Origin: Prevotella sp.
GTDB taxonomy: Bacteria; Bacteroidota; Bacteroidia; Bacteroidales; Bacteroidaceae
Length of the DNA stretch: 64,000 nucleotides
Direction of reading: 5' to 3'
NCBI GenBank assembly: GCA_015060485.1
Contig: SUYI01000012.1
Location: 20,872 to 84,871 of the forward strand
Below are positions 43,976-62,327 of this stretch, piece after piece (position 1 is the stretch's first letter; each line of letters opens with the position of its first letter). The notes below the pieces were generated by a model. That model did not search any database. It was not told the DNA's origin and worked only from the letters and a program-made list of their open reading frames with translations. A program made the translations under genes and the position numbers.

Positions 43976-44347
43976 TTATCCCAATGGTGTACAAATATAA
44001 TGTACTTCTTTGATGCCTTTACCGACTTTATATTGGTAGATATCTTCCAAGAAGAGTTTAGGCCCGCCTTGACATGGATAGTCTGATATCCGATAATGCT
44101 GGCGAAGTGGATATGAACTAATAGTTTCAGTAGTCCACTCAAAACCATCCGATTTGTATCTCAATGCATATAAGATCTTCGCATCCCAGTCCCACGCCTT
44201 CCATTCCCCTTCTTGATCATTTATTTTGGATTCCACTGGGTCAGATATTAATTGGGTTTTAATAGTAATATCCTTAAAACACTCATACAAGACATCTCCT
44301 TTGCAAAGGTGATAATTATGGGTAAACAATATTCTGGGCTGAATCAT
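43976..44347 (-). CDS. Hypothetical protein (no recognised domain)
   Basis: A 123-residue protein rich in Trp, Tyr and charged residues, with no signal peptide or membrane helix. Its ATG overlaps the stop of the zinc-ribbon gene upstream by four bases, so the two are co-translated. I do not recognise a family. It lies between the direct repeats at 43015 and 45116, so it may be part of a small inserted cassette. Confidence 0.55.
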   Translation of the reverse strand: MIQPRILFTHNYHLCKGDVLYECFKDITIKTQLISDPVESKINDQEGEWKAWDWDAKILYALRYKSDGFEWTTETISSYPLRQHYRISDYPCQGGPKLFLEDIYQYKVGKGIKEVHYICTPLG

Positions 44348-45045
44348 AGTTTGAAAACTTTACTGTCATTATCAATCATTCGCTTTTTGATGCCATTGTA
44401 TATGCCCTTTTCATAATCCTGCAGCGACTTATAAGGAATGGATTTCAGGACTTTCGCACACTCCTGCATCTTTCCGGCCTCACGATACAATTCAGCCTTC
44501 AGCAAGGGATGATTCACTTGAGTCCAGTCAAAGCCCTTAATGAACGAAAGCACTATCTTAACGAAGAAAGCATAGTCTGCTTTTGTTGGTTCCAGAGATT
44601 TGGAATTCCTGTAATAATGGTCATTGTAAGAATGGATGAGCCAAAAACACAAATCCACCTTATCTTTTCCACTAATCTTTTCAGACACGAACTGGCGATA
44701 TGCCTCTTTCCATTCAGAAAAGGTCAACTCACCAAGTTCAGAGGAACTTTTCTTACCTTCACCATGTCGGCTTTTACGCTCAAAATAGTACTTTTTGCAA
44801 CGAGGGCACTTCTGTATAGGAGATACAATTGGAAGCATCGGAGCAATTTTCTTATTGTCCGACCACAACTGGGCACCAAACGTATTACCTGAAGCCAATG
44901 TCATTAGCTCCTTCTCTTTTCCACAATATGGACACTTTACAATCTCAGCATTACCTATCAACATATTCGCTTCTTCTGTTTTTGAACTCATCGTCACAGA
45001 GATAATCAGTATGACAGTCAAGAATAGGGTTCTCATTTTCTTCAT
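44344..45045 (-). CDS. Exported zinc-ribbon (DUF2225-like) protein
   Basis: A 233-residue protein from the ATG at 45045; the longer frame starts at a TTG five codons up. It has an N-terminal signal peptide or anchor (MKKMRTLFLTVILIISVTM). It has two CxxC pairs, KCPYCGKEK near residue 38 and KCPRCKKYYFERKSR near 82, forming a split zinc ribbon as in DUF2225, followed by a TPR-like helical region. Own promoter. Coupled to the next gene by a four-base overlap. Its relation to the large operon upstream (79-base gap) is uncertain. Confidence 0.65.
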   Translation of the reverse strand: MKKMRTLFLTVILIISVTMSSKTEEANMLIGNAEIVKCPYCGKEKELMTLASGNTFGAQLWSDNKKIAPMLPIVSPIQKCPRCKKYYFERKSRHGEGKKSSSELGELTFSEWKEAYRQFVSEKISGKDKVDLCFWLIHSYNDHYYRNSKSLEPTKADYAFFVKIVLSFIKGFDWTQVNHPLLKAELYREAGKMQECAKVLKSIPYKSLQDYEKGIYNGIKKRMIDNDSKVFKL

Positions 45046-45072
45046 CTTTATAAAACACAAATAATTTGGTTA

Positions 45073-45115: not shown

Positions 45116-45142
45116 CACAAGCCTTGTGAAAACGAAAGATTA
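45116..45142. repeat. Palindrome-containing direct repeat, right copy
   Basis: CACAAGCCTTGTG plus AAACGAAAGATTA, matching 43015-43041. It ends at the stop codon of the gene at 45140. Confidence 0.7.
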
Positions 45143-46540
45143 TTCCCAGACCACTAAGTTACGAGGAAGAGTGATTTTCTTGGCTTCGCCACGTTTGCCT
45201 TCTATATAGTAGTACTTGGCCATATAGTCATCAAACTCACCCAAGAAAGCGCCACGAATTCTGGCACACTTCTCGTTGATAGAGTTAAGCAGGGGATTCG
45301 TTACATCCTCAATACTCTGCAATGCCCTGTCGCTAAGACCCATAGGACGCAGCTTGTTATAAATCTCTGCCAACTCTTTACGATAGTCAGGCAAGCACTT
45401 AAAGGCAATTCCCTCCGGATGCTTCAAGAATAAGAGATACACAGCCTTAACGATTGGCTCCATCTTAATCTCCATGTTTTGATAGTTGGGCAACACGATG
45501 CGATAATCCTTTGTAACCAGAAGTTTACTCAATCTGTCATCAGGATGAATCAACTGTTCCAATATCGACTCTGCAATTCCTCGAAGTCTCAGTTTGGCTA
45601 TTCGCTCGCGAACCTCTTCCATCAGGTTTTCAGTTTCCTCGTCTTGGTGTGGACTTGTCCCTAAATCTTTTGGTTCACTTACCACATCCCCCCAATCATC
45701 AAACGTATCGGATTGTTGCTCCAAATATCGTCCCTGTCCGAATCTTTCTGTCGATATTTGTTTCCCAATCCTATGCAACTGGTCAGCCAAAGGCTCCCCA
45801 CTAGTAGATGATAATGGATAGAATCTGTTGATTGCCTTATCCTTGCCGTCACTTCCTCGGTGAACATCCTCAGTGCGAATAAAACCGTGCTTCAGTTTAT
45901 CCCTATCTTCAGGATTATCCAAATACTGCAGTAAATAATCATTACCGATAGCAATGTCCTTTAGCTCTGCGTCTGTCAGATAGGGAGCCCTGTATTGTAA
46001 TACCTTCTTGTCCTTGAGGCGTTTTAGCAACAAAGGCAGGTAGACAATATGAAATCCTATCATCTGGCCCCATCCTTCCAACGCTTCGGGATGAGTCTCA
46101 AACAACTCCGTCAGAGCCTTGTCCTCCTCGCTCGCTACATACACCAATTCCTTGGGTGCCAGTTTGCCCTTCAGTTGAAACTCTATCTTGTTGTCCTCCA
46201 ATTCAGGATGATCATCCGGAGGTAGAGTTTCGTATTTCACATAGCCCTTCCTTGAGTTGCGCCATTCCATGATGAACAGAGCTATCAATAGCAGGGCCAC
46301 TATGACATCTACCACATTCCAGACCGTTCGTCCTAACGCAATCTTATATATCGGTTGAAACAACAATGCCAACGCTCCAAACACCCACGTAGCCACCATC
46401 TTCTGGTTCTGGTAGTAGCGATAGGCCATCACGCCAAACACCACCATCGCCACAAACCGCACGAACTGGAAATATCCGTACGGCATCGGTGCCAAGCAGA
46501 GCAGCATCATGGCTGCAAGGATCAGATAGATTTGTTTCAT
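45140..46540 (-). CDS. Membrane protein with DUF6804-like N-terminus and a C-terminal domain shared with the FtsZ-partner
   Basis: A 466-residue last gene of the large operon. Residues 1-100 contain four membrane helices resembling small DUF6804 proteins (PMPYGYFQFVRFV). A ~210-residue linker region follows. Residues ~325-466 form a domain (LSKLLVTKDYRIVL, KAVYLLFLKHPEGI, SINEKCARIRGAFL, LPRNLVVWE) found again in the protein at 61719 and in the fragment at 43834. Start 46540 is chosen because GGAGG lies eight bases upstream; the longer frame adds four codons and overlaps the nuclease gene. Function unknown; the cytoplasmic C-terminal domain may contact the tubulin-like GTPase. Confidence 0.75.
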   Translation of the reverse strand: MKQIYLILAAMMLLCLAPMPYGYFQFVRFVAMVVFGVMAYRYYQNQKMVATWVFGALALLFQPIYKIALGRTVWNVVDVIVALLLIALFIMEWRNSRKGYVKYETLPPDDHPELEDNKIEFQLKGKLAPKELVYVASEEDKALTELFETHPEALEGWGQMIGFHIVYLPLLLKRLKDKKVLQYRAPYLTDAELKDIAIGNDYLLQYLDNPEDRDKLKHGFIRTEDVHRGSDGKDKAINRFYPLSSTSGEPLADQLHRIGKQISTERFGQGRYLEQQSDTFDDWGDVVSEPKDLGTSPHQDEETENLMEEVRERIAKLRLRGIAESILEQLIHPDDRLSKLLVTKDYRIVLPNYQNMEIKMEPIVKAVYLLFLKHPEGIAFKCLPDYRKELAEIYNKLRPMGLSDRALQSIEDVTNPLLNSINEKCARIRGAFLGEFDDYMAKYYYIEGKRGEAKKITLPRNLVVWE

Positions 46541-46542
46541 GA

Positions 46543-47433
46543 TTACCTCCAATCTTCTAAATTTGAATATGCCTCAACTTTATTTTCTATGCTATCTGGC
46601 AGAGAAGGAAAGAAATCTATCTTTGTAATACGTTCTATTTCGTCAACAGTGTTAACATATTGGTCCTTTTTCTTGGCCCCCTCATTGTTCTTAACGATAA
46701 AGCCAATAGCTTTGGGCTTGCCTTCTAAACATAGAATGACTTTATAAAAAGCCTCAGGCACAACAACTTTGTTTAAACCAATCACCTCGTGTTCCTTATT
46801 ATAATATAATGGGCCACAAACAATGTAAACACCTCCATATTTCTGTGCCCATCTACGACAATCAGTTTCTACTCTGTTCCAAAGCCCACTATTTAAGCTT
46901 CTATCTTGCGGACACATATTAGACAAGAGGAACGTTTCGCTCATCGCATCTGAGTCCCATTTATTATCTCCAGCAGGACACATGTGTCCTCTCGACCAAG
47001 AACTTCCTCTATAATCATCATTTGTAGCTCTCGGAGCCGGTACGTCGTAATCCTCTCTGTAATCGTTCGACCTAGTCCACTCTCCGTCAGCATGATCTGC
47101 AGGTAAGTACCAAGCAACCCAATTAGGACATTTTGTGTCCTTATTATACGAAACGGTATAGGCTTTTCGCTTTATAATTTGCTCAGATACATTCTCTGTA
47201 ATTCTAGGGATCTCAACTGCATCAACATTAATAACGACTTTCTCTTGGACTGGTCCCTCTTTCACTTCTTCAACATCAGATACCAACGCAAGTTTTTGAC
47301 CTTCAGACTCATCTGCATTTTCTGAATATGATTCTTCTTCATATACTGAGTCAGGAACATCATCATTACATTGCCCAATAATCAATGCAATCAATAGTAC
47401 AGAAGCTATAAACATAATGATAAATTTTTTCAT
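46543..47433 (-). CDS. Membrane-anchored NucA-type DNA/RNA non-specific endonuclease
   Basis: A 296-residue nuclease. An N-terminal hydrophobic segment (about residues 3-20, ending IIGQC, a poor lipobox) anchors or exports it; an acidic linker of ~70 residues follows. The catalytic domain has the beta-beta-alpha-metal motif SRGHMCPAGDN near residue 150, with the catalytic His, and FLLSNMCPQ supplying the metal-binding Asn. The family degrades DNA and RNA without sequence preference. Placement in an operon with a proton-channel motor and cytoskeletal proteins makes it the likely effector, acting outside the cytoplasmic membrane. Confidence 0.85.
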   Translation of the reverse strand: MKKFIIMFIASVLLIALIIGQCNDDVPDSVYEEESYSENADESEGQKLALVSDVEEVKEGPVQEKVVINVDAVEIPRITENVSEQIIKRKAYTVSYNKDTKCPNWVAWYLPADHADGEWTRSNDYREDYDVPAPRATNDDYRGSSWSRGHMCPAGDNKWDSDAMSETFLLSNMCPQDRSLNSGLWNRVETDCRRWAQKYGGVYIVCGPLYYNKEHEVIGLNKVVVPEAFYKVILCLEGKPKAIGFIVKNNEGAKKKDQYVNTVDEIERITKIDFFPSLPDSIENKVEAYSNLEDWR

Positions 47434-47436
47434 TGC

Positions 47437-48597
47437 TTATACTTTGTTTATATAACTCTCCAAAGATACCCCCTCTTTACTTTTCCACTCAACCCAACCA
47501 TTTGAGTTTTCACCCAACACAAAGCAAGCCGCCTCATCAGGAGAATTACAAATGGCGTCCCTTCTCAATATGAGATCGTAACGAGTTATGTTACAGTTGA
47601 GCTTGATAAACTTATTCCGTTTTATATCTGATGCTGTATAACGATAAGAAGATGTCACCTCGCGGGCGAGTTCGCTTCCCTCTAAAATAATAAACTTGTC
47701 GTTCACCTTATCGTACATCCCTTTGGCGTTACACGATCTATCCCCCATGTTTTCACGAATGATATAATAATAACGCGGCGGACGGCCCACTTTGGCAAAC
47801 TTTGTAGTTTTCTTAGGCTCTTCGACTTTTTGAGGCTCCTGTACTTTTTCTGAGTGTTTTTGTTCTTTTTTTTGTGGCTGTTCTTTTGCCTTTAAGGGTA
47901 ATTCTGTTTTCTTTGATGGTTTCTTTATCTTTACTTTATCTTCTTTCTTTTGTATAGTCGCTGAAAAAACGTCAGGATAGACTTCAGATAGCATTTTCCC
48001 TTCAGAATCAATCCAACAGGTTTGATCAGCTAAATAACCAAGGACGTAACATGCAGCAGCAGAAGCGGAGCGACACTTCGCATCTCGAACAACGCGATAG
48101 AATCCCTTTTCTTCTACGCAAATTTTCTTCAAGAAAGTCTCTCGGGCATGCTCTGTATCATTGACCAAGTAGATAAGATCTGTTTCGTAAGACACTAGAC
48201 TATCCTTGCAAATAAAGAAGAATTGAACTTTTTCGTCGTAATAGCCCACCGAATCACAAACTCCATCTTCTCTAATGAAGAACAGGTGTTTATCAGAAAC
48301 CACAGGTTTAATTACACTCTGAGAAGACTGGACTGCTTTATGTTTATTTTGGAGACTTGCTAGGATTGTACATATTAAAGATTTCTTTCTGTCCTCTGTT
48401 CCTGGTTTTCTTTCAACAACAGGTAGTACTATTCCGTTAAAAGGCAACTCTTTGGTCAAATATGTTTCTAGAGGTTGGGAAACAATGTATTGTCGGAGTT
48501 CTTCATATTCTTCCTCCGAATCGAAAAGGTTAAATCGCTTTGCTGAGCCAAATAACTTTTCATACTCTTCATTAACATCCCAGTTGTCTTCCGACAT
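47437..48597 (-). CDS. Protein with two DUF4357-like modules
   Basis: A 386-residue cytoplasmic protein. Residues ~170-205 (CRSASAAACYVLGYLADQTCW) and ~345-385 (CNSPDEAACFVLGENSNGWVEW) are two copies of the DUF4357 pattern (SxSxAAxxVxGxxxNGWxxWK), each preceded by a beta-rich segment. A Lys/Glu/Pro-rich linker (about 225-275) joins the halves. DUF4357 is found at the ends of restriction and nuclease proteins and may bind DNA or damaged ends. Gaps to neighbours are 1 and 3 bases. No catalytic motif is visible. Confidence 0.7.
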   Translation of the reverse strand: MSEDNWDVNEEYEKLFGSAKRFNLFDSEEEYEELRQYIVSQPLETYLTKELPFNGIVLPVVERKPGTEDRKKSLICTILASLQNKHKAVQSSQSVIKPVVSDKHLFFIREDGVCDSVGYYDEKVQFFFICKDSLVSYETDLIYLVNDTEHARETFLKKICVEEKGFYRVVRDAKCRSASAAACYVLGYLADQTCWIDSEGKMLSEVYPDVFSATIQKKEDKVKIKKPSKKTELPLKAKEQPQKKEQKHSEKVQEPQKVEEPKKTTKFAKVGRPPRYYYIIRENMGDRSCNAKGMYDKVNDKFIILEGSELAREVTSSYRYTASDIKRNKFIKLNCNITRYDLILRRDAICNSPDEAACFVLGENSNGWVEWKSKEGVSLESYINKV

Positions 48598-48598
48598 A

Positions 48599-49405
48599 TC
48601 AATAACTGTTTTTCTTGTAAGCGTCTATTTTTTCCTTAGTAACATCGATATTACCAATTACAGGAACAATATGAATCAAGAATCTTTGGTTCTTACCTTC
48701 TTCTTCGTTCCACAATTTTGCAAATTCTTTATCGTCGGCAGCTTTGCTTTTTAAAGCAGCTTCATTAGGAATTACACGCGGAACGCCTCCCTCACCACTA
48801 CCAGAGATTATAAGTTCGCATCTTGGTATAGAGGCCAGATCAATATTATTCTCTTTCCAAAACTCGTTTAGGAAACTGGCCCTCAAATATGACAAGGTGT
48901 AATTGTTATGCCAATCATCAATATTAAAACTGATTTTTGATGCCTGGCCCTCAATTACAACCAAGAATTTAATATTATTGCTAGTTGAGTCCGGATGTAA
49001 GGCAACTTCTATGCCTTTGGTCTTTTCCAGTTTTAAAATCGTCTCTTTTATCAGTTCACCTGCCTGTATAATACTATCACGTTTATTATCTGCAGCCTCT
49101 TTGTCTATACCATCAAGTTTAAGTTTATCTATTCGATATTCCTTTTGTTGATATTCTACGTCTACTGTAAAAAGATGCTTTAGATATTCTTTATTGTAAC
49201 CGAAATACGCTGTTGAATCAATAGATCCAACTGTAGAATAAACAGTTATTATGTTCTCGTATTCATCAACCAAACTTTTCAACTGTTCTTCTTTATTCTT
49301 AAAACGGCTGTACGAAACGACGAAAAGGACAAGCATAATGGCAAACAGAGTTGTCATTATGTCTACATAACTAGGCCAAAATGATCCACTATTCTTTTTA
49401 TTCAT
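48599..49405 (-). CDS. ZorB/MotB-like stator protein with OmpA-like domain
   Basis: A 268-residue protein. One membrane helix (about residues 13-32, PSYVDIMTTLFAIMLVLFVV) carries the aspartate (D15) that binds protons in MotB/ZorB. A coiled-coil stretch and a periplasmic domain follow; LSYLRASFLNEFWKEN, ISGSGEGG and GKNQRFLIHI follow the OmpA peptidoglycan-binding order, though with weak matches. It lies two bases after the channel gene. In Zorya and flagella such a pair forms a proton-driven motor spanning the membrane. Confidence 0.8.
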   Translation of the reverse strand: MNKKNSGSFWPSYVDIMTTLFAIMLVLFVVSYSRFKNKEEQLKSLVDEYENIITVYSTVGSIDSTAYFGYNKEYLKHLFTVDVEYQQKEYRIDKLKLDGIDKEAADNKRDSIIQAGELIKETILKLEKTKGIEVALHPDSTSNNIKFLVVIEGQASKISFNIDDWHNNYTLSYLRASFLNEFWKENNIDLASIPRCELIISGSGEGGVPRVIPNEAALKSKAADDKEFAKLWNEEEGKNQRFLIHIVPVIGNIDVTKEKIDAYKKNSY

Positions 49406-49407
49406 TT

Positions 49408-51393
49408 CTACTTGTTAAATGGCCACCACCAACGTTTCTTCTTTTCCTCTACAGGTTCCTCCTCGGCAGTTTCCACCGTTTCTTCGATGTTAGTGTCTTT
49501 AACTATCTTTTTGTCGCTTGACGATTGATCAACAACAGGTGAAATATGTGAATTCTGTTCTTCGTCAACAGGTTTTGCCGGAGAAGTAAAACTCTGTTGG
49601 GAATCAACTATTCTTGGAGCTGAATAAGTTTTATATTGAGGACGGGAAGAGACAGGTATACGAGAGTACGTTTCCTCCTTTTTCTTTATTTCGTTTATCA
49701 GCTCAGAAACCCCATTTGTCAAAATCTGAATATTATTCCTTAATTCCTGGTTCTCTTTGCGTATCTGTTTCATTTCCTCATCGTTTACAGGTGGGGCAGG
49801 TACATAGGCAGGAATCTCCTTCTTTTTATGAGAATCTCCAGAATTATCTTGCTGTCTATGATGAAATTCTATCGTACCAAGAATCTTATTTGTTGATTCC
49901 AGATAATCAAATATTGACTCCAAATCGTCCCTTATAGACGAAAGTTGGTCTAGTTTTGACAAATTAGAGAAGTCTTTGTGTATCATCTCAACATTTAAGT
50001 TATCTTCCATTAGTGCCAAGAATTCATAGTGACGGACTCTAATATCTTCTTTAAGATCATCTATAAGCTTCTCAAATTCATCAGCATGCTCAGCTATTGC
50101 AAGCCTATAACGTTTATTCAATTCTTCTATCGCCTTAGTCTGCTCTTGGAACAAGTCTTCAAGGTTTCCATCAGCAACCTCCAGATAGCTATCTGCTATT
50201 TTGCTCTTCTTTTCAATAGCATTTACTTGGTCTCTAATTGCATTGACAACATCATTGCCAAGGATTTCCCGCTCATTAAGCTTATCGCCAAGTCTTTCAA
50301 TGTTAGCCTCAAAATTCTTAACGCGATCAAGTATTTGATTAATGCGTAATGCCACTTCTCTAGGAACAACGAGCGACTCTGAATATGCATTTTGCAGGTT
50401 AATAGCCTCCTGCGCTGCAGCCAACATCATACGGCGAGCTTCCTCAAACTTATTGAGGGATTGGGTAATACCCACAAAGTGATCAGCTGCTTCGACATAT
50501 TTCTCAAGCCCTCTAACTACTTCTTCTGACTTGAACGTAGATAGGACAGATTTCTGAAGAGCAATATTTTCATTAATCTTATCCATATTTTCGCCCATAA
50601 CCCTAACCGCATTAGATACAGTCTTCACGTTAGTCTCAAAACTTTGCCCAAATGCCTGTGTGCATCTATCAAAAGTGTTTTGGAATCGCGTAATAACTCC
50701 ATCAAAAGCTGGCTCGAATTTGTCTACAGTTTCATGAAGTTTGGATATCGCAGTCACCAAACTGACATCCAAAGAAGGCATCAATTCTGTTTGAATGAAA
50801 TCATAAAATTCATTTTTGTCACTTTCAACATCTTTTTGGGCTTCACCAATTCTACCTGTATTTATTGTCGTCAGCAATAATCCAATAAAACTAGTCGACA
50901 TAGAGATTAGAACTCCTATCAGAAGGTTCCTGATAGATGAATCTCTAAGAGCATCAGAACCATTAAAGCCAAGAACAAACATTGCGATACCAAGAAACAC
51001 GCCTAAGAATGTTCCCATGAGTCCAATGTTTGTAGGGAACGACAATTTTGACATTGCCTGATCGTAACGCATCGTTAGGTTACATTCCACTTTGTTCTGT
51101 ATAACCGCAAAATCTGTTGTCCCTCGTGTTTTAACAATATAGTGGTTTATCTCTGCTATAATATTGTTCAAATCATAGCTTTCAATGCCTACTTCCACTA
51201 ATTGAGGTATAGTATCCCCATCAATTTCCTTCTCCTCAGTCTTATAATCGCTGAGTTTAGTAAAGAAGTTTTTGTAAAGATCTAAAAAACTGTATGTTTC
51301 GGTGAAATACCTCAGCTGGAAATATGAGAATAACAGTAGAATGCCACCAGAAATGGCTACAGTCCACCAAACGTTTGTCAAAATATCATTCAT
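49408..51393 (-). CDS. ZorA/MotA/ExbB-like proton channel with long coiled-coil tail
   Basis: A 661-residue protein. Three membrane helices are visible (about 7-24, 122-143 and 156-177), the last two with the MotA/TolQ/ExbB pattern (LMGTFLGVFLGIAMFV; LIGVLISMSTSFIGLLLT). A ~370-residue helical coiled coil follows (about 185-560), as in ZorA, where it forms a long cytoplasmic tail, then a Pro/Ser-rich acidic region and a basic KKKRWWWPFNK end. With the adjacent ZorB-like protein it likely makes an ion-driven motor whose tail reaches into the cytoplasm, where the actin-like and tubulin-like partners would be. Confidence 0.85.
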   Translation of the reverse strand: MNDILTNVWWTVAISGGILLLFSYFQLRYFTETYSFLDLYKNFFTKLSDYKTEEKEIDGDTIPQLVEVGIESYDLNNIIAEINHYIVKTRGTTDFAVIQNKVECNLTMRYDQAMSKLSFPTNIGLMGTFLGVFLGIAMFVLGFNGSDALRDSSIRNLLIGVLISMSTSFIGLLLTTINTGRIGEAQKDVESDKNEFYDFIQTELMPSLDVSLVTAISKLHETVDKFEPAFDGVITRFQNTFDRCTQAFGQSFETNVKTVSNAVRVMGENMDKINENIALQKSVLSTFKSEEVVRGLEKYVEAADHFVGITQSLNKFEEARRMMLAAAQEAINLQNAYSESLVVPREVALRINQILDRVKNFEANIERLGDKLNEREILGNDVVNAIRDQVNAIEKKSKIADSYLEVADGNLEDLFQEQTKAIEELNKRYRLAIAEHADEFEKLIDDLKEDIRVRHYEFLALMEDNLNVEMIHKDFSNLSKLDQLSSIRDDLESIFDYLESTNKILGTIEFHHRQQDNSGDSHKKKEIPAYVPAPPVNDEEMKQIRKENQELRNNIQILTNGVSELINEIKKKEETYSRIPVSSRPQYKTYSAPRIVDSQQSFTSPAKPVDEEQNSHISPVVDQSSSDKKIVKDTNIEETVETAEEEPVEEKKKRWWWPFNK

Positions 51394-51398
51394 TCAAC

Positions 51399-54300
51399 TT
51401 ATATCTTTGTCAATTCAAATATGCGATTTATTACAGGGAGGAAGAATACCGAGTCGTTATAGAACACCTCTTCACCATATTTCTCTTTTACCTGAGTTTT
51501 ATAATAAGTAGCGAGGGGAGTACCCATGTCTTTATTTGCTTCTCTGGTATACTTCGACATATCTGCCATACCATCAATTATTCGTTCCTGTTGCAGTTTG
51601 TCAAGAACAGCCTTATAAAGATCATTTAGTTCATCATACTTACTAAGTAGTACTTTCTTAAGAGAATCGAAATTATCATTCAGATCACTCACTTTCTGAT
51701 ACTTCTTAGTAACATCACCCTGATAAACAATGTCCTTCACATTCTCCTCATTGGGATCACGATATAAACCTCCATAACAGGTTGACTCCTTTCGTTCTTC
51801 AGGAAGTTTCAGATTGACATCCGATTTCTCCTCAAAAACATGCTCGAATATCAAGTCAATAATGCTCTTAAGCACATTGGTATCGGTTGCAATAAAGTTG
51901 TCAATATATTTACTTCCGTTTCCACTAAAGACCACTGTACGAGGTGCTTGAAGTTGGTTATCCTTATACATGCTAGCCATGTAATAAAGAATTGATGTAA
52001 GATGATAAATAAAAACAGGTTTGAAATCCTCTCTTAAATACTTAGTTATATTACAATACTCATAATTACTTAGCCAGAAGTTAATGATATCCTTTGTTTT
52101 CAGACCATCTACATTCTTGAAGCTTTCATTTAGCTCTTCCAAATCTTTTCTCTCAAAACGTAGATTCTCTGCATACCTCCTATAGATACCATTCTCTCGC
52201 TCATTTTGGAACTCTATGAATCCGTTTTCCCAAAGTACATCACATCCAAAGTGTACAGAATTGGCAACTACTGGTTGGTTGTCCTTGAAATAGACAAAAT
52301 CTGTCGAACCACCACCAATATCAATAACCGTTACTGCTTCAGAATCTTTAATATAATCTTTCTTCTTATAATAATAGTAAGGAGCTTCAGATTCTGAGTA
52401 TTGTCTGATCTGATTCGGTTCAATAAAAAGAATATTCTTTGGCTCAGAAGTCCATATGTCATTATATATAGCCTTTTCGTTACCAGAGAAACTCAAGGGA
52501 CTAAACCATACGAGCTTTGTACGGTCAAGATCTCCATTTCGCTGCAATATATCACACTTGATAATGAGCAGTAATTCCCGAACGAAAATCCGTAGCATAT
52601 CTTCGTTCTTATCCCACTTAATATCGGTATGTACATCCTGATCGTCATTGGCCATCATTCGCTCGTAGAAGAACGCGATGTTATGGTTATCAAACAATCT
52701 TGGCCTTTGTACCCTGTTATGAATTCCACATAGTGCTGTGCGAATCGGGAACTTATAATAATCTCCATCAATAATTGCCGGTAAGAACTCCGTCTTAATC
52801 TTATTCTTGGCTTTGGCAAACACAGAATCCTCAATCCTACTTGCCAACGAGAACTGGTCGTTATCAGGAACCTCATGCATGAAATTTACCATAGGACGGT
52901 CCATTTTGAAGAGCTCCGGTTTCCTGCTAAGGTCTGGTTTGCCGTTTGCGTCGTTCTTACACCTTGACATAAAGGTGTTTGATGTACCCAAGTCGATTGC
53001 GTAAGTGAAAGTAACATCTGTAGCCTGACTCTTCTGCCAAACTGGACGTAAAAGGCCTGTATCTCCAAGAACTTTCACTTCAATCAAATCGAATGAAGTA
53101 TTAAACAGTTCATAGAATTTCGTTCCACTCTCTTCCATATCGGTCTTTTGCCTCGAACGTACAACTGCTGGCAATGTTCCATAACCAGCTCCTTGTTCTG
53201 GTTCGACTTCACCAATATGAACTCCTTTCTTGAAGAAAGAAAGTGAAATCTGGTCTATATTAAAATGGGGTGCTTCGGGGTCTTCATCAGCTGCAACAAC
53301 AAGAACTTTAAAGTAGTTATTCTCTTGCTCCTTATATGAAAGAATATTGGGGAAAAGTCCTAAATCAAAACTAATCTTTGCTTTCTGCAGGTCAACTATT
53401 CGTCCTTGTCCATCTTTGAAAGGTTCTACTGCATACTCTTTCTCATATTCTTTTCCGTTATAGCGCAAATGAGCTGTAACAGAATTGCGGTTTATATGTA
53501 TATCTGCATCTATGTTACCATCAGGGAAGAGATTTACCACATCATTCTTAAATGGTATCAGATAATCATAATTACGATTGGGAGAATCGTTCTGATATGT
53601 CACTCCAATGAATGTATCTTTCGAAATACGATATGGTATACGTATCAGATTGTCAGTAAAGTAATAGTTTACATCAATCTCGTCCAATTGGCGAATATTC
53701 AACCCGTTAATTATTAAATCATCATTCTGGTCTGTTTTAACAGATACAGTATGAGGATTCCTGTCATTGCGAATAGACTCGTCCTTATCCTTGAAGCTTC
53801 GAATAAAGTCTCTAATTGTCTTAAAACGTGCATCTGTGTTACCAGTTCCAAACAAAATGTTGAACATGTAATTCTTGAAATCGACTTCACGGTCAGAGAA
53901 TGCCTTTGCCTCGCGGAAATATTCTCCGCCAGATTTTCTTCTGATGTGAAGATTCTTATATTGTTCACCAACAAAGACCTGCGACTTAACACCTTCCTCT
54001 TGGATTATCATCTTATCAAGGTCTGGAGGTGTGACAAATCCCGTCATAGGTGAACTACAAGCCAAAAGCATCTCTCTTCCCTTTTCTGTATAAACCAGAA
54101 AATATAGCTTTTCTTCAATAATATCCGTCTTATAGTATTCGACAACCGAATTATACAAGATGGGCATTTTTTTCTTGATGATTTCCATATTCTCCTTGAA
54201 GTCCCATTCTCGCAACTCGATTTTCTCACCACTCCTCCAGGTGTTATTTCTATGATATTTCAAATTGAAGAGCAATTCGTAGATATCAAGGATGTCCGAT

Positions 54301-54548
54301 ACCATTTGTGTGTATGCTAAACCTGCCTCCTTGGATCGATCCATACTTTCCTCCATGACACGTCTGAATGCTTCTCGTGCCACAAAGAAACGAGCAAATG
54401 GCGTTGGTAAAGAATTAAGTGCTGCGCAATTGTCAGTCTTTTGCTCAACGACCTTATCCAAACTGTCTGCTGTTAAAGCTATATCTTCTGCAGCCCATTT
54501 GGTGCCTTCTGCACCGCGATCAACGATATTTAGATCTATTCTTGACAT
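51399..54548 (-). CDS. Large protein with C-terminal actin/Hsp70-fold ATPase
   Basis: A 1049-residue protein. Residues 1-~510 are an unrecognised N-terminal region: helical to ~160, then beta-rich. From ~515 an actin/Hsp70-superfamily ATPase is evident: phosphate-1 loop YAIDLGTSNTF (about 516-525), phosphate-2 VIDIGGGSTDFVYF (about 741-754) and adenosine motif VVFSGNGSKYI (about 871-881). No membrane helix or signal peptide, so cytoplasmic. It lies between the tubulin-like and channel genes with 2-5 base gaps. It could be a polymerising cytomotive protein or an ATP-dependent switch; sequence alone does not decide. Confidence 0.78.
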   Translation of the reverse strand: MSRIDLNIVDRGAEGTKWAAEDIALTADSLDKVVEQKTDNCAALNSLPTPFARFFVAREAFRRVMEESMDRSKEAGLAYTQMVSDILDIYELLFNLKYHRNNTWRSGEKIELREWDFKENMEIIKKKMPILYNSVVEYYKTDIIEEKLYFLVYTEKGREMLLACSSPMTGFVTPPDLDKMIIQEEGVKSQVFVGEQYKNLHIRRKSGGEYFREAKAFSDREVDFKNYMFNILFGTGNTDARFKTIRDFIRSFKDKDESIRNDRNPHTVSVKTDQNDDLIINGLNIRQLDEIDVNYYFTDNLIRIPYRISKDTFIGVTYQNDSPNRNYDYLIPFKNDVVNLFPDGNIDADIHINRNSVTAHLRYNGKEYEKEYAVEPFKDGQGRIVDLQKAKISFDLGLFPNILSYKEQENNYFKVLVVAADEDPEAPHFNIDQISLSFFKKGVHIGEVEPEQGAGYGTLPAVVRSRQKTDMEESGTKFYELFNTSFDLIEVKVLGDTGLLRPVWQKSQATDVTFTYAIDLGTSNTFMSRCKNDANGKPDLSRKPELFKMDRPMVNFMHEVPDNDQFSLASRIEDSVFAKAKNKIKTEFLPAIIDGDYYKFPIRTALCGIHNRVQRPRLFDNHNIAFFYERMMANDDQDVHTDIKWDKNEDMLRIFVRELLLIIKCDILQRNGDLDRTKLVWFSPLSFSGNEKAIYNDIWTSEPKNILFIEPNQIRQYSESEAPYYYYKKKDYIKDSEAVTVIDIGGGSTDFVYFKDNQPVVANSVHFGCDVLWENGFIEFQNERENGIYRRYAENLRFERKDLEELNESFKNVDGLKTKDIINFWLSNYEYCNITKYLREDFKPVFIYHLTSILYYMASMYKDNQLQAPRTVVFSGNGSKYIDNFIATDTNVLKSIIDLIFEHVFEEKSDVNLKLPEERKESTCYGGLYRDPNEENVKDIVYQGDVTKKYQKVSDLNDNFDSLKKVLLSKYDELNDLYKAVLDKLQQERIIDGMADMSKYTREANKDMGTPLATYYKTQVKEKYGEEVFYNDSVFFLPVINRIFELTKI

Positions 54549-54550
54549 AA

Positions 54551-55948
54551 TTATTTCTCCAATTTCTTAGTGTAATAGTTAATAGCGTCATAAGCAAACT
54601 GTAGGAAAAACCGGAATTTGTTGCTATGATCTTTCTCGTTGTAAGCATTACTTGCTTTAATCATTTCCAAAAGATAATATGAGTCATTCTTTGCGTCTAA
54701 CTCCATATGCTTAATCCATCCCGACATTTGTTTTGGATCATCATAATGCAATGGTGCAAAGGCTCGCTTGTTTGTGGCCAACTCGTGATACCATTTAAAA
54801 TAAGTGTCCGTGAACTTTTTTAAATTCTGGAAAGGCTGGTCTTTATAAAATGCACTATTCAAACCTCTGTTCTTGACCAACGGGAAGAAAGGCTCATTGG
54901 GGACGTCGTTTATCAATTGACGTAGTAGCATATAATCTGCGACACACTTTACGATATCGTTATATCCACTTCCTAACGAATCAATAGACATTGATTCCTT
55001 ATCATTCTCAATAGCTCTAGATAAGAATTGTTGTCTCTTTGGTCTCTCTCTCTTTAAGAAATCGAACAATGAAGATGCCGCAATAAGTTCAATGAAATTA
55101 GCAGTATCTTCTTGCTTTGCCTCGTCGTTTTCATATACCTGACGCAAAGTCTTTTCGCCAATATAATACAAATAATCAGATAGTATGTTCTTGTCGTAAT
55201 ATGCCAGTGCAGCTTTTGTCTTTGTATAGAAGTTCGAACTATCTATATCACTACCTGTTGTCGAGGGGTCTTTTAATCCATAATATGGTAAAACTGATAC
55301 AGCACCCATCACAACATTCTTTACAGCTGGTTGCTGAGATGCATTTCTAATTTTCTTCTCGATTAATGGAAAGCCTGATGCACCGGTACCTCCAAATATA
55401 GAACTGATAATAAAAACTCTATCATCCTTTTCGCAGTGAATTTTGAATGCATTGAACCAGTCTGCCTGTTCTATCATCTCACCCAGAACCACCGTTCCAA
55501 CGTTCGGATTGCCCTTAAAACCGACTGAAAGTGGATTGTTCAGGTTCTTTGTAGAGAAAAGAGTTTCCACGAAATAATTGTTGATATCCGTTGTTCCTAG
55601 GCTGGACATGTTTATATACGAGCGAAACTTCTCGTTGCTTCCAACGGCCTGATGAGTGTCATTAAGTTGATTGTTTATCTCTCCAATTGTCTGCATCTCT
55701 GAATTAAAGAAACCATTGAGGGGGTTCAATGTTGAGGTACCATTATTAATAGATTCTTTATAGATTTTCTCATAATTGTCTATTAGAGAATGAAGATTCT
55801 TTTTCTCTTCCAAATCCATATGCGGATCTATGATAATGGGAACAACGGTATATCCATTTGTGCTCATGCCACTAGCCATCAACATTGTGACACTTTTCAT
55901 CACGCGGATGCCTGTTCCTCCTATACAAAAAACAAATACCTTCTTCAT
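54551..55948 (-). CDS. Tubulin/FtsZ-superfamily GTPase-like protein (Tubulin_2-like)
   Basis: A 465-residue protein. The N-terminus VFVFCIGGTGIRVMKSV has the Gly-rich loop and first helix of a tubulin Rossmann fold, and SSIFGGTGASGFPLI (about 182-196) matches the tubulin/FtsZ signature GGGTGxG. It is far from true FtsZ (no clear T7 loop NxDFxD) and resembles the bacterial tubulin-like proteins that occur in vWA-containing conflict operons. No membrane segment. It may bind GTP and polymerise or act as a nucleotide switch. Gap to the actin-like gene: two bases. Confidence 0.75.
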   Translation of the reverse strand: MKKVFVFCIGGTGIRVMKSVTMLMASGMSTNGYTVVPIIIDPHMDLEEKKNLHSLIDNYEKIYKESINNGTSTLNPLNGFFNSEMQTIGEINNQLNDTHQAVGSNEKFRSYINMSSLGTTDINNYFVETLFSTKNLNNPLSVGFKGNPNVGTVVLGEMIEQADWFNAFKIHCEKDDRVFIISSIFGGTGASGFPLIEKKIRNASQQPAVKNVVMGAVSVLPYYGLKDPSTTGSDIDSSNFYTKTKAALAYYDKNILSDYLYYIGEKTLRQVYENDEAKQEDTANFIELIAASSLFDFLKRERPKRQQFLSRAIENDKESMSIDSLGSGYNDIVKCVADYMLLRQLINDVPNEPFFPLVKNRGLNSAFYKDQPFQNLKKFTDTYFKWYHELATNKRAFAPLHYDDPKQMSGWIKHMELDAKNDSYYLLEMIKASNAYNEKDHSNKFRFFLQFAYDAINYYTKKLEK

Positions 55949-55954
55949 GTTTTC

Positions 55955-56404
55955 CTATATTTTAAAGATTCTACATGCATTGGTTGGACCAATATTGCAC
56001 CACACAACCGATACTACAAAGTAAAAAACGGATGCGTATATAGCATTACCCAATGCAATTTTCGTCTCAAGCATAAGTGCGCCTTCCAATTTGGGAGGTA
56101 CTGCAAAATACTCAAATCCAAGTGTTACTAAAAAAGTTAGTATAAATGTTATTAGAAGAAAAATAATCCAATGTTTCAATGTATAATGTCTACCTGGAGC
56201 ATCATTATAAGGCTTATAATAATAAGCAGCTAAAGCTATACCAAGGAAAACAAATATTAAAATGATGACAATTGAAGAATTCTCTAATTGAGACCAAAAC
56301 GTTTTGGCCTGTTTGTATAACTCTTCGTTTTCTCTTTGTTTAAAAGGCCGTGCAAAGTCATTCACAGACCCAGCAATCCAATTATACAATTTTAGCAATT
56401 TCAT
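55955..56404 (-). CDS. Small membrane protein of the motor/tubulin operon
   Basis: A 149-residue protein with three membrane helices (about residues 43-62, 78-97 and 120-139) and a charged N-terminal region of 40 residues. I recognise no family. Its position between the vWA-like lipoprotein and the tubulin-like gene, with gaps of 2 and 6 bases, suggests a membrane link between the extracytoplasmic and cytoplasmic parts of the system. Confidence 0.65.
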   Translation of the reverse strand: MKLLKLYNWIAGSVNDFARPFKQRENEELYKQAKTFWSQLENSSIVIILIFVFLGIALAAYYYKPYNDAPGRHYTLKHWIIFLLITFILTFLVTLGFEYFAVPPKLEGALMLETKIALGNAIYASVFYFVVSVVWCNIGPTNACRIFKI

Positions 56405-56406
56405 AT

Positions 56407-57666
56407 TTATGAGTTTTTAGAAATCAAAATATAATTAGGCTTAAGTGTCTTGTTTACGACACCACCATAAAAAATGCCCTTCAAGAAATTCTCCAAAGAA
56501 AATGTCTTGTCTACATCATTTGGAGACATCGCTCCCATATACGGAGAGAATTTGGACACATCTAAATCTGGCAACTCCAATGTCCACTCTAACACATCTG
56601 CATCCATTGGCATTCCGAATACTTTAAGATCAACTATAGCAGTTGCCTTTCTTATTAACTGCTTTCCTGTGATGTTTTCAATTTCATATTTAACATTACC
56701 AAGTTTTACACCTGAACCATAAAGAGATTTTACTTTGAATCCATTAGTAAAGAACAAGCTATCCGCTATTGCCCATCGATAATTCTCTAAAGATATCTTC
56801 AAATTAATTGTACAGGTATCAGAGTCTGAAGGATCGTAACCAACAAACGTTGGATTAACATTGTCCATCTGCCAACAATTGTCGGGCATTCCAAACGTAA
56901 AATTAATTGAGCCGTAATCAAAACCACTCTCAATATTATCTATTAAACGACCATTATTGAAAAGTAAAGTAGATATAGAATTTCTAAAATAAGCCACATT
57001 CTCATCTTTTCCTATTATCAAGAAATAATACGGAGACTTATTTGTAATTTCCACACCTTTTTTATCTAAATAAGAAGATATAGCGCCTATGAGACATACA
57101 TCTCTATTACCTTTGCCAATTATGTCACTTATATCCGAACTATATTGAGTCATGAGTACGTCTGGAGCTTCAGCACCAACTGGGTCATATTTCATATCTG
57201 ATATAAGAATCGCTATCTCGCCTTTTTGAGTATCAAAATCATTCATAATAGATTTAAGCATACTAGGCACTTGAGTTGATGCACCAGAAACAAATGCACC
57301 CGTATTCATTTTCATTTTAAAACTATTCAATGACTCCTTTTCACCTGTATTTCCATCATTCTTAAGTATTGTTATTTCTGATTGTAGTTCTGAAAAATAA
57401 CTCATAATCTGCCATACATCAGCTTTAAAATCTGTTGGTCTATTAGCTCTGAAGAAACCATTCATACTGCCAGAGACTTCAACATAATATTTAATCTTTT
57501 GGGGTGGTTGCATCTTAAAGGCGCTATCTTTATTAATGGTTAACAACTTGCCATCTTCATCAAAATACATCTGATCCACAGGGTTGATATCGTCACATGA
57601 TGATATAGACAGGATTGCTAATCCAATAATAGATATAACAGCAATTACGAAGACACTTTTTTTCAT
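56407..57666 (-). CDS. vWA-like lipoprotein, first gene of the motor/tubulin operon
   Basis: A 419-residue lipoprotein: signal peptide and lipobox ILSISSC (Cys24). Residues ~57-240 look like a von Willebrand A fold. KYYVEVSGSMNGFF (about 59-72) stands where the MIDAS DxSxS loop is expected, but with Glu for the first Asp; VSGASTQVPSML supplies the threonine loop and IAILISDMKYDP (about 151-162) the third loop. The C-terminal half is beta-rich. It is probably exposed in the periplasm or on the outer membrane and could sense or bind a partner. The long structured leader lies directly upstream. Confidence 0.72.
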   Translation of the reverse strand: MKKSVFVIAVISIIGLAILSISSCDDINPVDQMYFDEDGKLLTINKDSAFKMQPPQKIKYYVEVSGSMNGFFRANRPTDFKADVWQIMSYFSELQSEITILKNDGNTGEKESLNSFKMKMNTGAFVSGASTQVPSMLKSIMNDFDTQKGEIAILISDMKYDPVGAEAPDVLMTQYSSDISDIIGKGNRDVCLIGAISSYLDKKGVEITNKSPYYFLIIGKDENVAYFRNSISTLLFNNGRLIDNIESGFDYGSINFTFGMPDNCWQMDNVNPTFVGYDPSDSDTCTINLKISLENYRWAIADSLFFTNGFKVKSLYGSGVKLGNVKYEIENITGKQLIRKATAIVDLKVFGMPMDADVLEWTLELPDLDVSKFSPYMGAMSPNDVDKTFSLENFLKGIFYGGVVNKTLKPNYILISKNS

Positions 57667-57985
57667 TTCCTATATCCGCCTATCGGCCTCCCAAGTTTCG
57701 GCTGTTTGTTTTAGGTTTAAATGAAAGACGTGGGAGTCACTACTTCTCGCTTATCCCAAGTCTCAGGCTCTCGCATTGCCTCCATCTCCAAGATAAGCAA
57801 CTCGAGTTAGCCCACGCCATGATATATTGTAGCAGTGTACAATACACCTAACGCGGACGTTTCGGTTGCGTTTCTTCAGAGATGGATTCAAATTTGCGAG
57901 ATTTGAGACTCTAAAGATAACGTTCGTAAACGTCCTTTTACCACTATGTTCTGACCCGCTCACCCTTTACAGGCTACCCGAGTCG
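57667..57985 (-). ncRNA. ~315-base structured leader or small RNA upstream of the operon
   Basis: Between the promoter (57990-58021) and the first ATG there is no gene but several complementary pairs: CGTGGG/CCCACG (57729-57734, 57811-57816) enclosing GCTTATC/GATAAGC (57749-57755, 57792-57798); GTGTA/TACAC (57835-57839, 57843-57847); and GGACGTTT/AAACGTCC (57855-57862, 57928-57935) enclosing TCAAAT/ATTTGA (57888-57893, 57901-57906). This points to a folded RNA, either a cis-regulatory leader or a separate transcript. Confidence 0.6.
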
Positions 57986-57989
57986 ACTG

Positions 57990-58021
57990 CAAATATAGCA
58001 AGATTATTTTAACAAGCCAAA
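57990..58021 (-). promoter_or_regulatory. Promoter of the leader RNA and the nine-gene operon
   Basis: Minus strand TTTG (58018-58021), 20 bases, TATATTTG (57990-57997). It is the only good promoter seen upstream of the operon. The sequence just upstream of the -7 box belongs to the dispersed ~300-bp repeat. Confidence 0.72.
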
Positions 58022-60429: not shown

Positions 60430-60456
60430 CAGTCGAATCTGAATTAAAGAGTGAAT

Positions 60457-61722: not shown

Positions 61723-62327
61723 CGGACGTGACGCATCATACTCCTGAAGAGGTTGCTATGCAGATAAGGCATCTGGCTGAACAACTTCAGACGGCAGGTC
61801 GGAAGGACTTGTTGTTGCGGGCCATTGGTGCACCTTTGCTCGAAGAACTGCGCATTGAGGCTGCAAAGGCGAAGCTGAGCAGACTGCTGATAACAAAGGA
61901 CTACAGGTTCTTTCTGGTAGATATGGGCAACAGGGAGATAGAACTGCAACCTGTACACAAGGCGGTGTATCTATTGTTTCTGGCACATCCAGAGGGAATT
62001 GAGTTCAAGCGGTTGGGTGACTATCGGGAGGAACTGACACGCTACTACATGCAGACAGCAAAGTTGTTGGACAAGGAGAAAATTATAGACGGTGTTAACC
62101 ATCTGGTGAATCCACTCGACAATGCCATCAACGAGAAATGCTCACGCATCAAGAAGGTATTCTTGGAGATGATGGATGAGTATATGGGCAGTTACTACAT
62201 CATCAGCGGACATACACAGAAACACATAGCCGGGTCTTCGCGTATCTGGTATGAGCGCTTGAAGGTTATCATACTGCCGAGGGAGTTGGTTGTAAGTGAA
62301 ATAACTTTACGGATAACTCCGAGATGA
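61719..62327 (+). CDS. FtsZ-linked protein sharing the C-terminal domain of the gene at 45140
   Basis: A 202-residue cytoplasmic protein overlapping the FtsZ gene by four bases (ATGA). Residues ~42-202 align closely with residues ~325-466 of the protein at 45140-46540: LSRLLITKDYR, KAVYLLFLAHPEGIEFK, DYREELTRYY, AINEKCSRIKKVFL and LPRELVVSE have direct counterparts there. The N-terminal ~40 residues are a separate helix region. No known family is recognised. Coupling with FtsZ, and the homologue's operon with a tubulin-like GTPase, suggest it regulates or binds tubulin-superfamily filaments. Confidence 0.78.
   Translation: MTDVTHHTPEEVAMQIRHLAEQLQTAGRKDLLLRAIGAPLLEELRIEAAKAKLSRLLITKDYRFFLVDMGNREIELQPVHKAVYLLFLAHPEGIEFKRLGDYREELTRYYMQTAKLLDKEKIIDGVNHLVNPLDNAINEKCSRIKKVFLEMMDEYMGSYYIISGHTQKHIAGSSRIWYERLKVIILPRELVVSEITLRITPR

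What the first reader, a model, noticed from the sequence alone, without database searches (positions are those of the whole stretch)
45140..57666. Nine-gene operon combining a ZorAB-like motor with tubulin-like, actin-like, vWA and nuclease proteins
Seen: nine minus-strand genes separated by only 1-6 bases, in the order vWA-like lipoprotein, membrane protein, tubulin-like GTPase, actin/Hsp70-type ATPase, MotA/ZorA-like channel with long coiled coil, MotB/ZorB-like stator, DUF4357-like protein, anchored NucA nuclease, DUF6804-like membrane protein. Known: Zorya anti-phage systems use ZorAB with cytosolic effectors (ZorC/D, ZorE, or ZorF/G). None of those effectors is here, and two cytoskeletal NTPases take their place. 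Inference: a membrane-spanning, ion-driven conflict or cell-envelope machine in which an outside signal (vWA lipoprotein/stator) is passed by the coiled-coil tail to cytoskeletal filaments and the nuclease. Neighbouring HigBA, Fic and AbiE genes fit a defence island.
Basis: partly seen in the sequence, partly recalled or inferred. Interest (0 to 1): 0.93.

Follow-up and report, generated by a model that had tools for sequence, protein, structure and literature searches.

The report
Motor-driven tubulin–actin envelope defence machine
Some Bacteroidota carry a fixed set of genes for a tubulin-like and an actin-like protein, often followed by genes for a predicted ion-driven membrane motor and a predicted exported nuclease or protease; together they likely form a defence machine at the cell envelope, which would be a new use of a bacterial cytoskeleton.

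Summary
In detail: nine minus-strand ORFs, 1-6 nt apart, with the named families. I read 102 loci found through the tubulin-like protein. In 93 of 102 the genes for a vWA-like lipoprotein, a small membrane protein, the tubulin-like and the actin-like protein lie together in that order; of these 93, 59 carry a ZorA-ZorB-like pair downstream, 7 ZorA only, 27 neither. So the cytoskeletal pair is the core and the motor a module with several gains or losses. DUF4357, NucA and DUF6804 genes are accessory. Signal- or anchor-bearing hydrolases (NucA, trypsin-like, SNase, aspartyl protease) lie in 45 of 68 motor-bearing operons against 3 of 34 others. Ion-path and NTP-binding residues are conserved. 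It is not Zorya: no Zorya effector was found. I commit to an envelope conflict machine in which filaments position or load the motor and an exported hydrolase acts; function is inferred. Ten searches of open papers did not show this gene set. A structured 5' leader RNA without Rfam match precedes the operon and, elsewhere, mostly secreted-protein genes.

The parts
57990..58020 (-). Bacteroidetes-type promoter-like site TTG-N20-TATATTTG (consensus recalled)
   Evidence: read from sequence
57667..57990 (-). structured 5' leader RNA of the operon, no Rfam match
   Evidence: MFE -116.8 kcal/mol, z -6.4, 0 of 100 shuffles; upstream of gene 1 with no other gene between in 14 tubulin loci, window included; 26-copy alignment with 26 consensus pairs, 10 of them with changes on both sides; no Rfam family at gathering in four other stretches and no credible one at E<=5 here
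56407..57666 (-). gene 1: vWA-like plus Ig-like lipoprotein, core
   Evidence: MIDAS-like E-x-S-G-S and D157; AF2 pLDDT 90.8; vWA/I-domain rows over about residues 51-237, beta-sandwich rows over about 253-419
55955..56404 (-). gene 2: small membrane protein, three hydrophobic stretches, core
54551..55948 (-). gene 3: tubulin-like GTPase, core
   Evidence: PF00091 3.4e-5; GGTG in 101 and FGGTG in 102 of 102; the 22 PDB profile rows at E<=1 are FtsZ/tubulin, best 0.27
51399..54548 (-). gene 4: actin-like ATPase (residues about 511-936) with an N-terminal half of untested fold, core
49408..51393 (-). gene 5: ZorA-like channel with long coiled-coil C-terminal tail, module
   Evidence: NCBIfam ZorA 1.6e-5; PDB ZorA chains 0.0016 and 0.012; T128 in 68 and S168 in 66 of 71
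48599..49405 (-). gene 6: ZorB-like stator with OmpA-like C-terminal domain, module
   Evidence: profile matches chain 8vvn_B 6.6e-11, 8VVN being type I ZorAB; D15 aligns with its D24; D in 60 of 62
47437..48597 (-). gene 7: protein with two DUF4357 stretches, accessory
   Evidence: PF14267 2.9e-19, PADLOC candidate PDC-S14 1.4e-28; in 18 of 102 loci
46543..47433 (-). gene 8: NucA-type endonuclease with N-terminal signal or anchor, accessory, effector candidate
   Evidence: PF01223 1.2e-54; hydrophobic residues 4-22; SRGH motif
45140..46552 (-). gene 9: DUF6804 membrane part with a C-terminal domain, accessory
   Evidence: PF20619 2.2e-28; 164 C-terminal residues 44% identical to the gene next to a second ftsZ
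43976..45060 (-). two more same-strand genes (zinc-ribbon type, 238 aa, and 123 aa), possibly the tail of the same transcript
   Evidence: 79-nt gap after gene 9, 4-nt overlap between the two; weak PaaD-type zinc ribbon 1.3e-4; no homologue at 1e-5 among the ORFs of the other 101 loci

Best explanation
The operon encodes a fixed core of a vWA-like lipoprotein, a small membrane protein, a tubulin-like and an actin-like protein, joined here to a ZorAB-like motor and a NucA-type nuclease, and it likely works as a conflict machine that guards the cell envelope. Shown by sequence: the core order, the conserved nucleotide-binding and ion-path residues, the motor as an optional module, and the co-occurrence of motor genes and signal-bearing hydrolase genes. 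Inferred, step by step: (1) the vWA/Ig lipoprotein and the peptidoglycan-binding domain of the ZorB-like stator would sense a breach or contact outside the inner membrane; (2) ion flow past D15 would turn or strain the ZorA-like pentamer and its long coiled-coil tail; (3) in the cytoplasm the tubulin-like protein would polymerise and the actin-like protein would tie it to membrane protein 2, as FtsA ties FtsZ, so that filaments gather motors at the breach or give the tail something to pull on; (4) the motor would pass force or a conformational change across the membrane to the exported hydrolase, here NucA, which would cut DNA on its way in. In other loci a trypsin-like, SNase or aspartyl-protease protein takes that place.
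For: Core order 1-2-3-4 in 93 of 102 loci, g3-g4 gap median 4 nt; the tubulin-like and actin-like genes are also adjacent on two cyanobacterial plasmids, with a gene 1 match of 8.5e-8 on one. Active-site conservation of both NTPases and of the motor. ZorB homology 6.6e-11 and D15 = D24 (D24 called critical in PMC11890865, passages). Hydrolases of four families with signals or anchors, judged by eye and by a hydropathy scan; hydrolase in 45 of 68 operons with a motor gene versus 3 of 34 without, Fisher 1.7e-8; outside the window's subfamily 20 of 34 versus 3 of 34, p 2.2e-5; with 3.5 kb of room after gene 4, 20 of 34 versus 3 of 21, p 0.0017. Patchy distribution: 18 of 60 genomes of the genus and 9 of 296 of the phylum sample, own genome counted in both; distant clades of g3 within one genus. 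Two strong ZorB relatives without the core sit with DarT and a NADAR-like gene (L180) and with vWA and TmtA (L181). PADLOC models at 1e-10: 128 matched among 140 flank proteins versus 17 among 128 control proteins.
Against: No experiment exists. The leader RNA is shared with secreted, surface and RiPP-like genes, and I saw no known defence gene behind it, which fits an envelope or competition role at least as well. 23 of 68 motor operons show no recognised hydrolase and 27 of 93 core loci show no motor gene, so the core must do something without either. Tubulin and vWA assignments rest on weak profile scores plus motifs and a model; the tubulin profile against the genome's own FtsZ gave only E 0.078, probability 0.7%. 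The flank test counts models (one protein can match several), its two sets differ in taxonomy, and the flank sample holds some NucA and SNase genes that may belong to the operons. The Fisher tests ignore relatedness of loci. Contact between filaments, tail and motor is pure inference. Two of eight strong ZorB-like matches elsewhere in the family have no core.
Confidence: 0.45

Rival explanations
1. Envelope or surface machine without a defence role: an ion motor running on cytoskeletal tracks, comparable to the AglRQS-MreB gliding apparatus (recalled), moves or assembles surface lipoproteins; the hydrolases process envelope or environmental polymers.
For: Motor plus filament proteins plus lipoproteins; leader RNA shared with secreted and surface protein genes; vWA proteins driven by TolQ-like motors are predicted as force transducers (PMC12204202, passages).
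Against: Patchy occurrence (18 of 60 and 9 of 296 genomes), interchangeable nuclease and protease genes, some defence-type genes in flanks, and DarT or TmtA next to related motors are unusual for housekeeping or motility.
Confidence: 0.25
2. Membrane remodelling or vesicle formation by an FtsZl1-type tubulin, as Makarova and Koonin proposed in 2010, with the motor as an energy source.
For: FtsZl1 operons carry vWA and OmpA-domain genes; Bacteroides caccae and cyanobacteria are named in the alignment legend and text (PMC2875224, abstract and passages); weak PF13809 matches here.
Against: Does not explain swappable nucleases and proteases, nor the actin-like partner and ZorA, which the passages seen do not mention.
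Confidence: 0.12
3. A Zorya-like defence with a cytosolic effector: the motor signals inward and the DUF4357 protein (gene 7) or the actin-like protein acts on phage DNA; NucA is secondary.
For: ZorAB homology; DUF4357 stretches match PADLOC candidate PDC-S14; known Zorya systems recruit cytosolic nucleases (PMC11890865, passages).
Against: Gene 7 is in 18 of 102 loci, all of them close to the window's own subfamily, while exported hydrolases recur with the motor across subfamilies.
Confidence: 0.13
4. Chance or assembly artefact: unrelated genes that happen to be adjacent.
For: None beyond weak family scores of single proteins.
Against: 93 of 102 loci share the core order, from many separately deposited records.
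Confidence: 0.01

Closest known systems
Zorya anti-phage systems (ZorAB)
   Same: ZorA-like subunit with long tail, ZorB-like stator with the critical aspartate and OmpA-like domain
   Different: no ZorC/D, ZorE or ZorF/G match; tubulin-like and actin-like core present, also without the motor; hydrolases carry export signals
FtsZl1 operons (Makarova and Koonin 2010, PMC2875224; abstract and passages)
   Same: tubulin-family gene with vWA and OmpA-domain partners, patchy spread
   Different: no P-loop GTPase or protein kinase match among the nine proteins; actin-like partner, ZorA channel and hydrolases are not in the passages read
GTPase-centric and NucA-trypsin conflict systems (Kaur et al. 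2020, PMC7159879; passages)
   Same: tubulin, vWA and HSP70-class parts in some; NucA and trypsin-like effectors in others
   Different: theirs centre on TRAFAC GTPases, with tubulin and HSP70 parts (overview) or as separate themes in Firmicutes and Actinobacteria (GAP1-N2 passage); no such GTPase match here; the words Zorya and MotA do not occur there
FtsZ-FtsA division pair
   Different: true FtsZ genes exist elsewhere in the genome; gene 4 has a 500-residue N-terminal half; patchy presence, so not essential division genes
vWA force transducers with TolQ-like motors (PMC12204202; passages)
   Same: vWA protein encoded next to a 5:2-type motor
   Different: there the vWA protein itself carries the transmembrane motor contact; the word tubulin does not occur there

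Membership tests
Zorya | ZorA: MotA-like channel with long cytoplasmic tail | tested here: met
   NCBIfam ZorA_2 1.6e-5, PDB ZorA chains 0.0016 and 0.012, T128/S168 conserved; individual scores weak
Zorya | ZorB: stator with critical Asp and OmpA-like peptidoglycan-binding domain | tested here: met
   8vvn_B (type I ZorB) 6.6e-11 over profile positions 4-212; D15 = D24; R175 in 59 of 62
Zorya | type-specific effector ZorC/D, ZorE or ZorF/G | tested here: not met
   no such PADLOC match among the nine proteins at E<=1 nor among eight neighbours at 1e-5; whether PADLOC-DB 2.0.0 models every Zorya effector was not checked
Zorya | anti-phage activity | not testable with these tools
   needs plating assays
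FtsZ/tubulin superfamily | GTP-binding signature loop and tubulin fold | tested here: met
   PF00091 3.4e-5 (under its cut-off), FGGTG in 102 of 102, only FtsZ/tubulin rows among 22 in a PDB profile search, best 0.27; first G of the usual GGGTG is F; profile against the genome's own FtsZ weak, E 0.078; no model of gene 3 was made
FtsZl1 (Makarova and Koonin) | membership of the FtsZl1 / Tubulin_2 family | tested here: inconclusive
   PF13809 0.01 in window, 9.1e-4 in a cyanobacterial relative, both under cut-off
FtsZl1 (Makarova and Koonin) | vWA partner gene | tested here: met
   gene 1, by motif and model
FtsZl1 (Makarova and Koonin) | P-loop GTPase partner (frequent, not universal) | tested here: not met
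   no GTPase family among the nine proteins
Actin/ASKHA superfamily | phosphate-1, phosphate-2 and adenosine motifs with actin fold | tested here: met
Hsp70 chaperone | DnaK family assignment with substrate-binding domain | tested here: inconclusive
Kaur GTPase-centric conflict systems | TRAFAC GTPase (GAP1/DO-GTPase) core | tested here: not met
   no such family among the nine proteins; library coverage of these GTPases not checked

The most novel reading that the evidence does not exclude
A categorically new class of bacterial immune machine: an ion-driven rotary motor coupled to a two-filament cytoskeleton, tubulin-like and actin-like, that is recruited to an envelope breach and powers interchangeable nucleases and proteases outside the inner membrane, so that invading DNA or proteins are cut before they reach the cytoplasm.
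Probability: 0.28. Interest if true: 0.96.

Novelty: new variant of a known kind. Interest (0 to 1): 0.84.

Why it matters
If right, bacterial tubulin and actin relatives serve immunity as well as division, shape and plasmid segregation, and ZorAB-type motors are a general power module that can be joined to different cores and outputs. It makes a prediction of 2010 (FtsZ-like families in operons with vWA proteins) testable in cultured Bacteroidota and names the residues to mutate. It also brings up a structured leader RNA without Rfam match that ties this operon to a set of secreted-protein genes.

Tried and rejected
Considered and rejected: a conserved nine-gene unit (genes 7, 8 and 9 have a relative in 18, 35 and 19 of 102 stretches, and NucA lies inside the operon in 29); a true Zorya type (no effector match); an Hsp70 chaperone reading of gene 4 (MreB rows rank first); phage origin (no match of the tubulin-like protein in the phage collection; three IMG/VR contigs carry it, whose viral nature I did not check); the leader as a defence-specific RNA; a link between the zinc-ribbon gene 44344-45060 and one zinc-ribbon gene of another locus (E 0.012); in-frame stops reported inside two ZorB-like matches, which are the genes' own stop codons. 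Foldseek gave no match below 1e-3 for gene 1. The fold of the N-terminal half of gene 4 stays open, since the hit list was filled by the actin part. One search timed out and was redone. Promoter and terminator pattern counts in the region are no more than in shuffles. Papers: ten full-text searches, read as listings, in a library without most subscription journals, showed no paper with this gene set; the Nature Zorya paper is not held. Passages of PMC12505986 call Zorya a remote relative of MotAB and do not mention tubulin.

Limits of the counts: one search kept the best 80 of 558 relatives (and its pattern list was itself capped), so the 102 loci lean towards near relatives; genes were called by my own longest-first ORF script; loci cut by contig ends stay in the totals unless said otherwise; motor presence is looked for up to eight genes after gene 3, within the same-strand run with gaps up to 110 nt, 13 of 102 rows without a usable motor label were left out of the label count; I scanned 140 of 384 flank genes and 128 of 221 control genes, and no Pfam scan of the control was made.
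Full report
OBSERVATION. The nine ORFs are where the finding puts them, all on the minus strand, with gaps of 1-6 nt if gene 9 starts at the ATG at 46540. Single-protein family searches give strong matches for genes 7 (DUF4357), 8 (NucA) and 9 (DUF6804) and weak ones for 3, 4, 5 and 6; gene 1 has none of note. The window lies in a 3.9-Mb genome of 88 contigs; the nearest g3 relatives in named records are from Prevotella.

CONSERVATION. I collected 102 loci that encode a relative of the tubulin-like protein: the window, 18 stretches from genomes of the genus, the best 80 of 558 relatives in genome contigs and 3 viral contigs. Profiles iterated from the window proteins were run on ORFs of all loci. 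In 93 of 102 loci genes 1-2-3-4 are contiguous in that order; g3 and g4 are neighbours in 101 of 102, with a median gap of 4 nt. Of the 93, 59 carry adjacent ZorA and ZorB, 7 ZorA only and 27 neither. The nine exceptions are L028, L034, L035, L036, L071, L077, L081, L083 and L086: L034 and L077 have only two called genes, L083 and L086 have the gene 1 relative further upstream, L035 and L036 have other genes in place of 1-2 and TerD-type genes behind. In the window's own subfamily (31 contig loci, 51-93% identical) 29 of 31 have 1-2-3-4-5-6. Gene 7 has a relative in 18, gene 8 in 35 and gene 9 in 19 of 102 stretches. The pair g3-g4 is also encoded side by side on two cyanobacterial plasmids (g3 4e-51 and 4e-44, g4 8e-24 and 2e-38), with a gene 1 match of 8.5e-8 on one of them and no gene 2 match.

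CHECK FROM THE OTHER END. A search with the ZorB-like profile in 121 genomes of the family gave 32 genomes with some match and 9 strong ones (E up to 1.7e-39), the window included. Of the other eight, four have the full core, one has gene 4 at its contig end, one contig ends just upstream of ZorA, and two have no core. Three of the four full ones were already among my loci. The two without core are informative: L180 has DarT (PF14487 6.8e-27), DUF6939/NADAR-like, ZorA, ZorB; L181 has vWA (PF00092 1.4e-5), ZorA, ZorB and a TmtA match (PADLOC name, 1.1e-171).

MODULES. Downstream genes fall into families: a signal-peptide or anchored coiled-coil protein with a conserved C-terminal stretch (V0, operons of 46 loci; fused to gene 4 in L070, L072, L074), trypsin-like peptidase (13), aspartyl protease (8), SNase (6) and NucA. 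Nearly all members of the four hydrolase families begin, by eye and hydropathy scan, with a lipobox-like signal or hydrophobic anchor. A hydrolase is present in 45 of 68 operons with a motor gene and 3 of 34 without (p 1.7e-8); leaving out the window's subfamily it is 20 of 34 and 3 of 34 (p 2.2e-5), and with at least 3.5 kb of downstream room 20 of 34 and 3 of 21 (p 0.0017). Relatedness of loci is not corrected for. On a quick tree of g3 the motor label (89 rows) needs 8 changes, 5 of them forced by starred branches, against 19.1 when shuffled, so the motor is inherited in blocks but was gained or lost several times.

DISTRIBUTION AND CONTEXT. The tubulin-like gene is in 18 of 60 genomes of the genus and 9 of 296 of the phylum sample, own genome counted in both; genomes of the genus carry members of several distant clades. 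PADLOC models at 1e-10: 128 families matched among 140 sampled flank proteins, 17 among 128 proteins from 20 stretches of other genomes of the genus; the 25 flank models shown include AbiE and type II methyltransferases, and the Pfam list of the flanks has HsdR, AlbA_2 and integrases, but also NucA and SNase genes that my operon rule may have missed. This is suggestive only: the sets differ in taxonomy, and one protein may match many models. Next to the window's operon stand HigBA and a Fic gene.

LEADER RNA. Between a TTG-N20-TATATTTG promoter-like site and gene 1 lies a 324-nt leader with z -6.4. It lies upstream of gene 1, up to 162 nt away, in 14 tubulin loci (in L059 my gene 1 call overlaps it) and with other genes between in 3 more. 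BLAST finds it in 20 of 60 genomes of the genus, own included, with up to six matching pieces each. At 18 other sites with a same-strand gene behind it, the first gene has a signal-like N-terminus in 12 by eye; L158 has a radical-SAM gene (Pfam), L165 one that looks alike. The 26-copy alignment supports 26 pairs, 10 with both sides changed. Rfam has no match. This ties the operon to a surface or secretion regulon and is evidence against a pure defence-island view.

MECHANISM. I commit to an envelope conflict machine (confidence 0.45): outside sensing by gene 1 and the ZorB domain, ion flow through ZorAB, coupling through the tail to membrane-tied tubulin/actin filaments, and output by an exported hydrolase. 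Sensing, polymerisation, coupling and output are all inferred. A non-immune envelope machine is the strongest rival (0.25).

NOVELTY. Parts and partial combinations are known: Zorya, FtsZl1-vWA operons (PMC2875224), tubulin or HSP70 GTPase systems and NucA-trypsin systems (PMC7159879). In the passages read, none joins a ZorAB motor with a tubulin-actin core, and ten searches showed no paper with the set. Makarova and Koonin's supplementary operon tables were not available, so part of the core may be listed there.

Noticed in passing
window 57667-58020, minus strand; L145-L153, L155-L173: Structured leader RNA without Rfam match, before this operon and, in other genomes of the genus, mostly before secreted-protein, surface-protein and RiPP-like genes; covariation in 10 of 26 pairs.
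   Followed up: partly
L180 7520-11341: DarT - DUF6939/NADAR-like - ZorA-like - ZorB-like operon: a relative of this motor joined to a DarT-type toxin-antitoxin pair, without the cytoskeletal core.
   Followed up: partly
L181 70-4716: vWA protein - ZorA - ZorB - TmtA-like genes, another ZorAB arrangement without a recognised Zorya effector.
   Followed up: partly
window 60451-62327: A second FtsZ paralogue (54% identical to the other copy in the genome; 22 of 59 other genomes of the genus have a copy 60-84% identical) followed, with a 4-nt overlap, by a 202-aa gene 44% identical over 164 residues to the C-terminal domain of gene 9.
   Followed up: partly
L035, L036: Distant tubulin-actin pairs followed by a large gene and TerD-family genes (one tested, PF02342 2.9e-42), perhaps a tellurite-stress-type variant of the core.
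   Followed up: no
L070, L072, L074: The V0 C-terminal stretch is fused to the C-terminus of the actin-like protein.
   Followed up: no
L120, L121: Cyanobacterial plasmids carry the tubulin-actin pair plus signal-peptide coiled-coil proteins; the L120 plasmid is typed mobilizable.
   Followed up: partly
L054, L067: Two loci of the subfamily sit in MAG contigs labelled Roseburia and Lachnospiraceae; transfer to Firmicutes or mis-binning, not resolved.
   Followed up: no
window 23309-23710: HEPN-domain gene about 21 kb from the operon.
   Followed up: no
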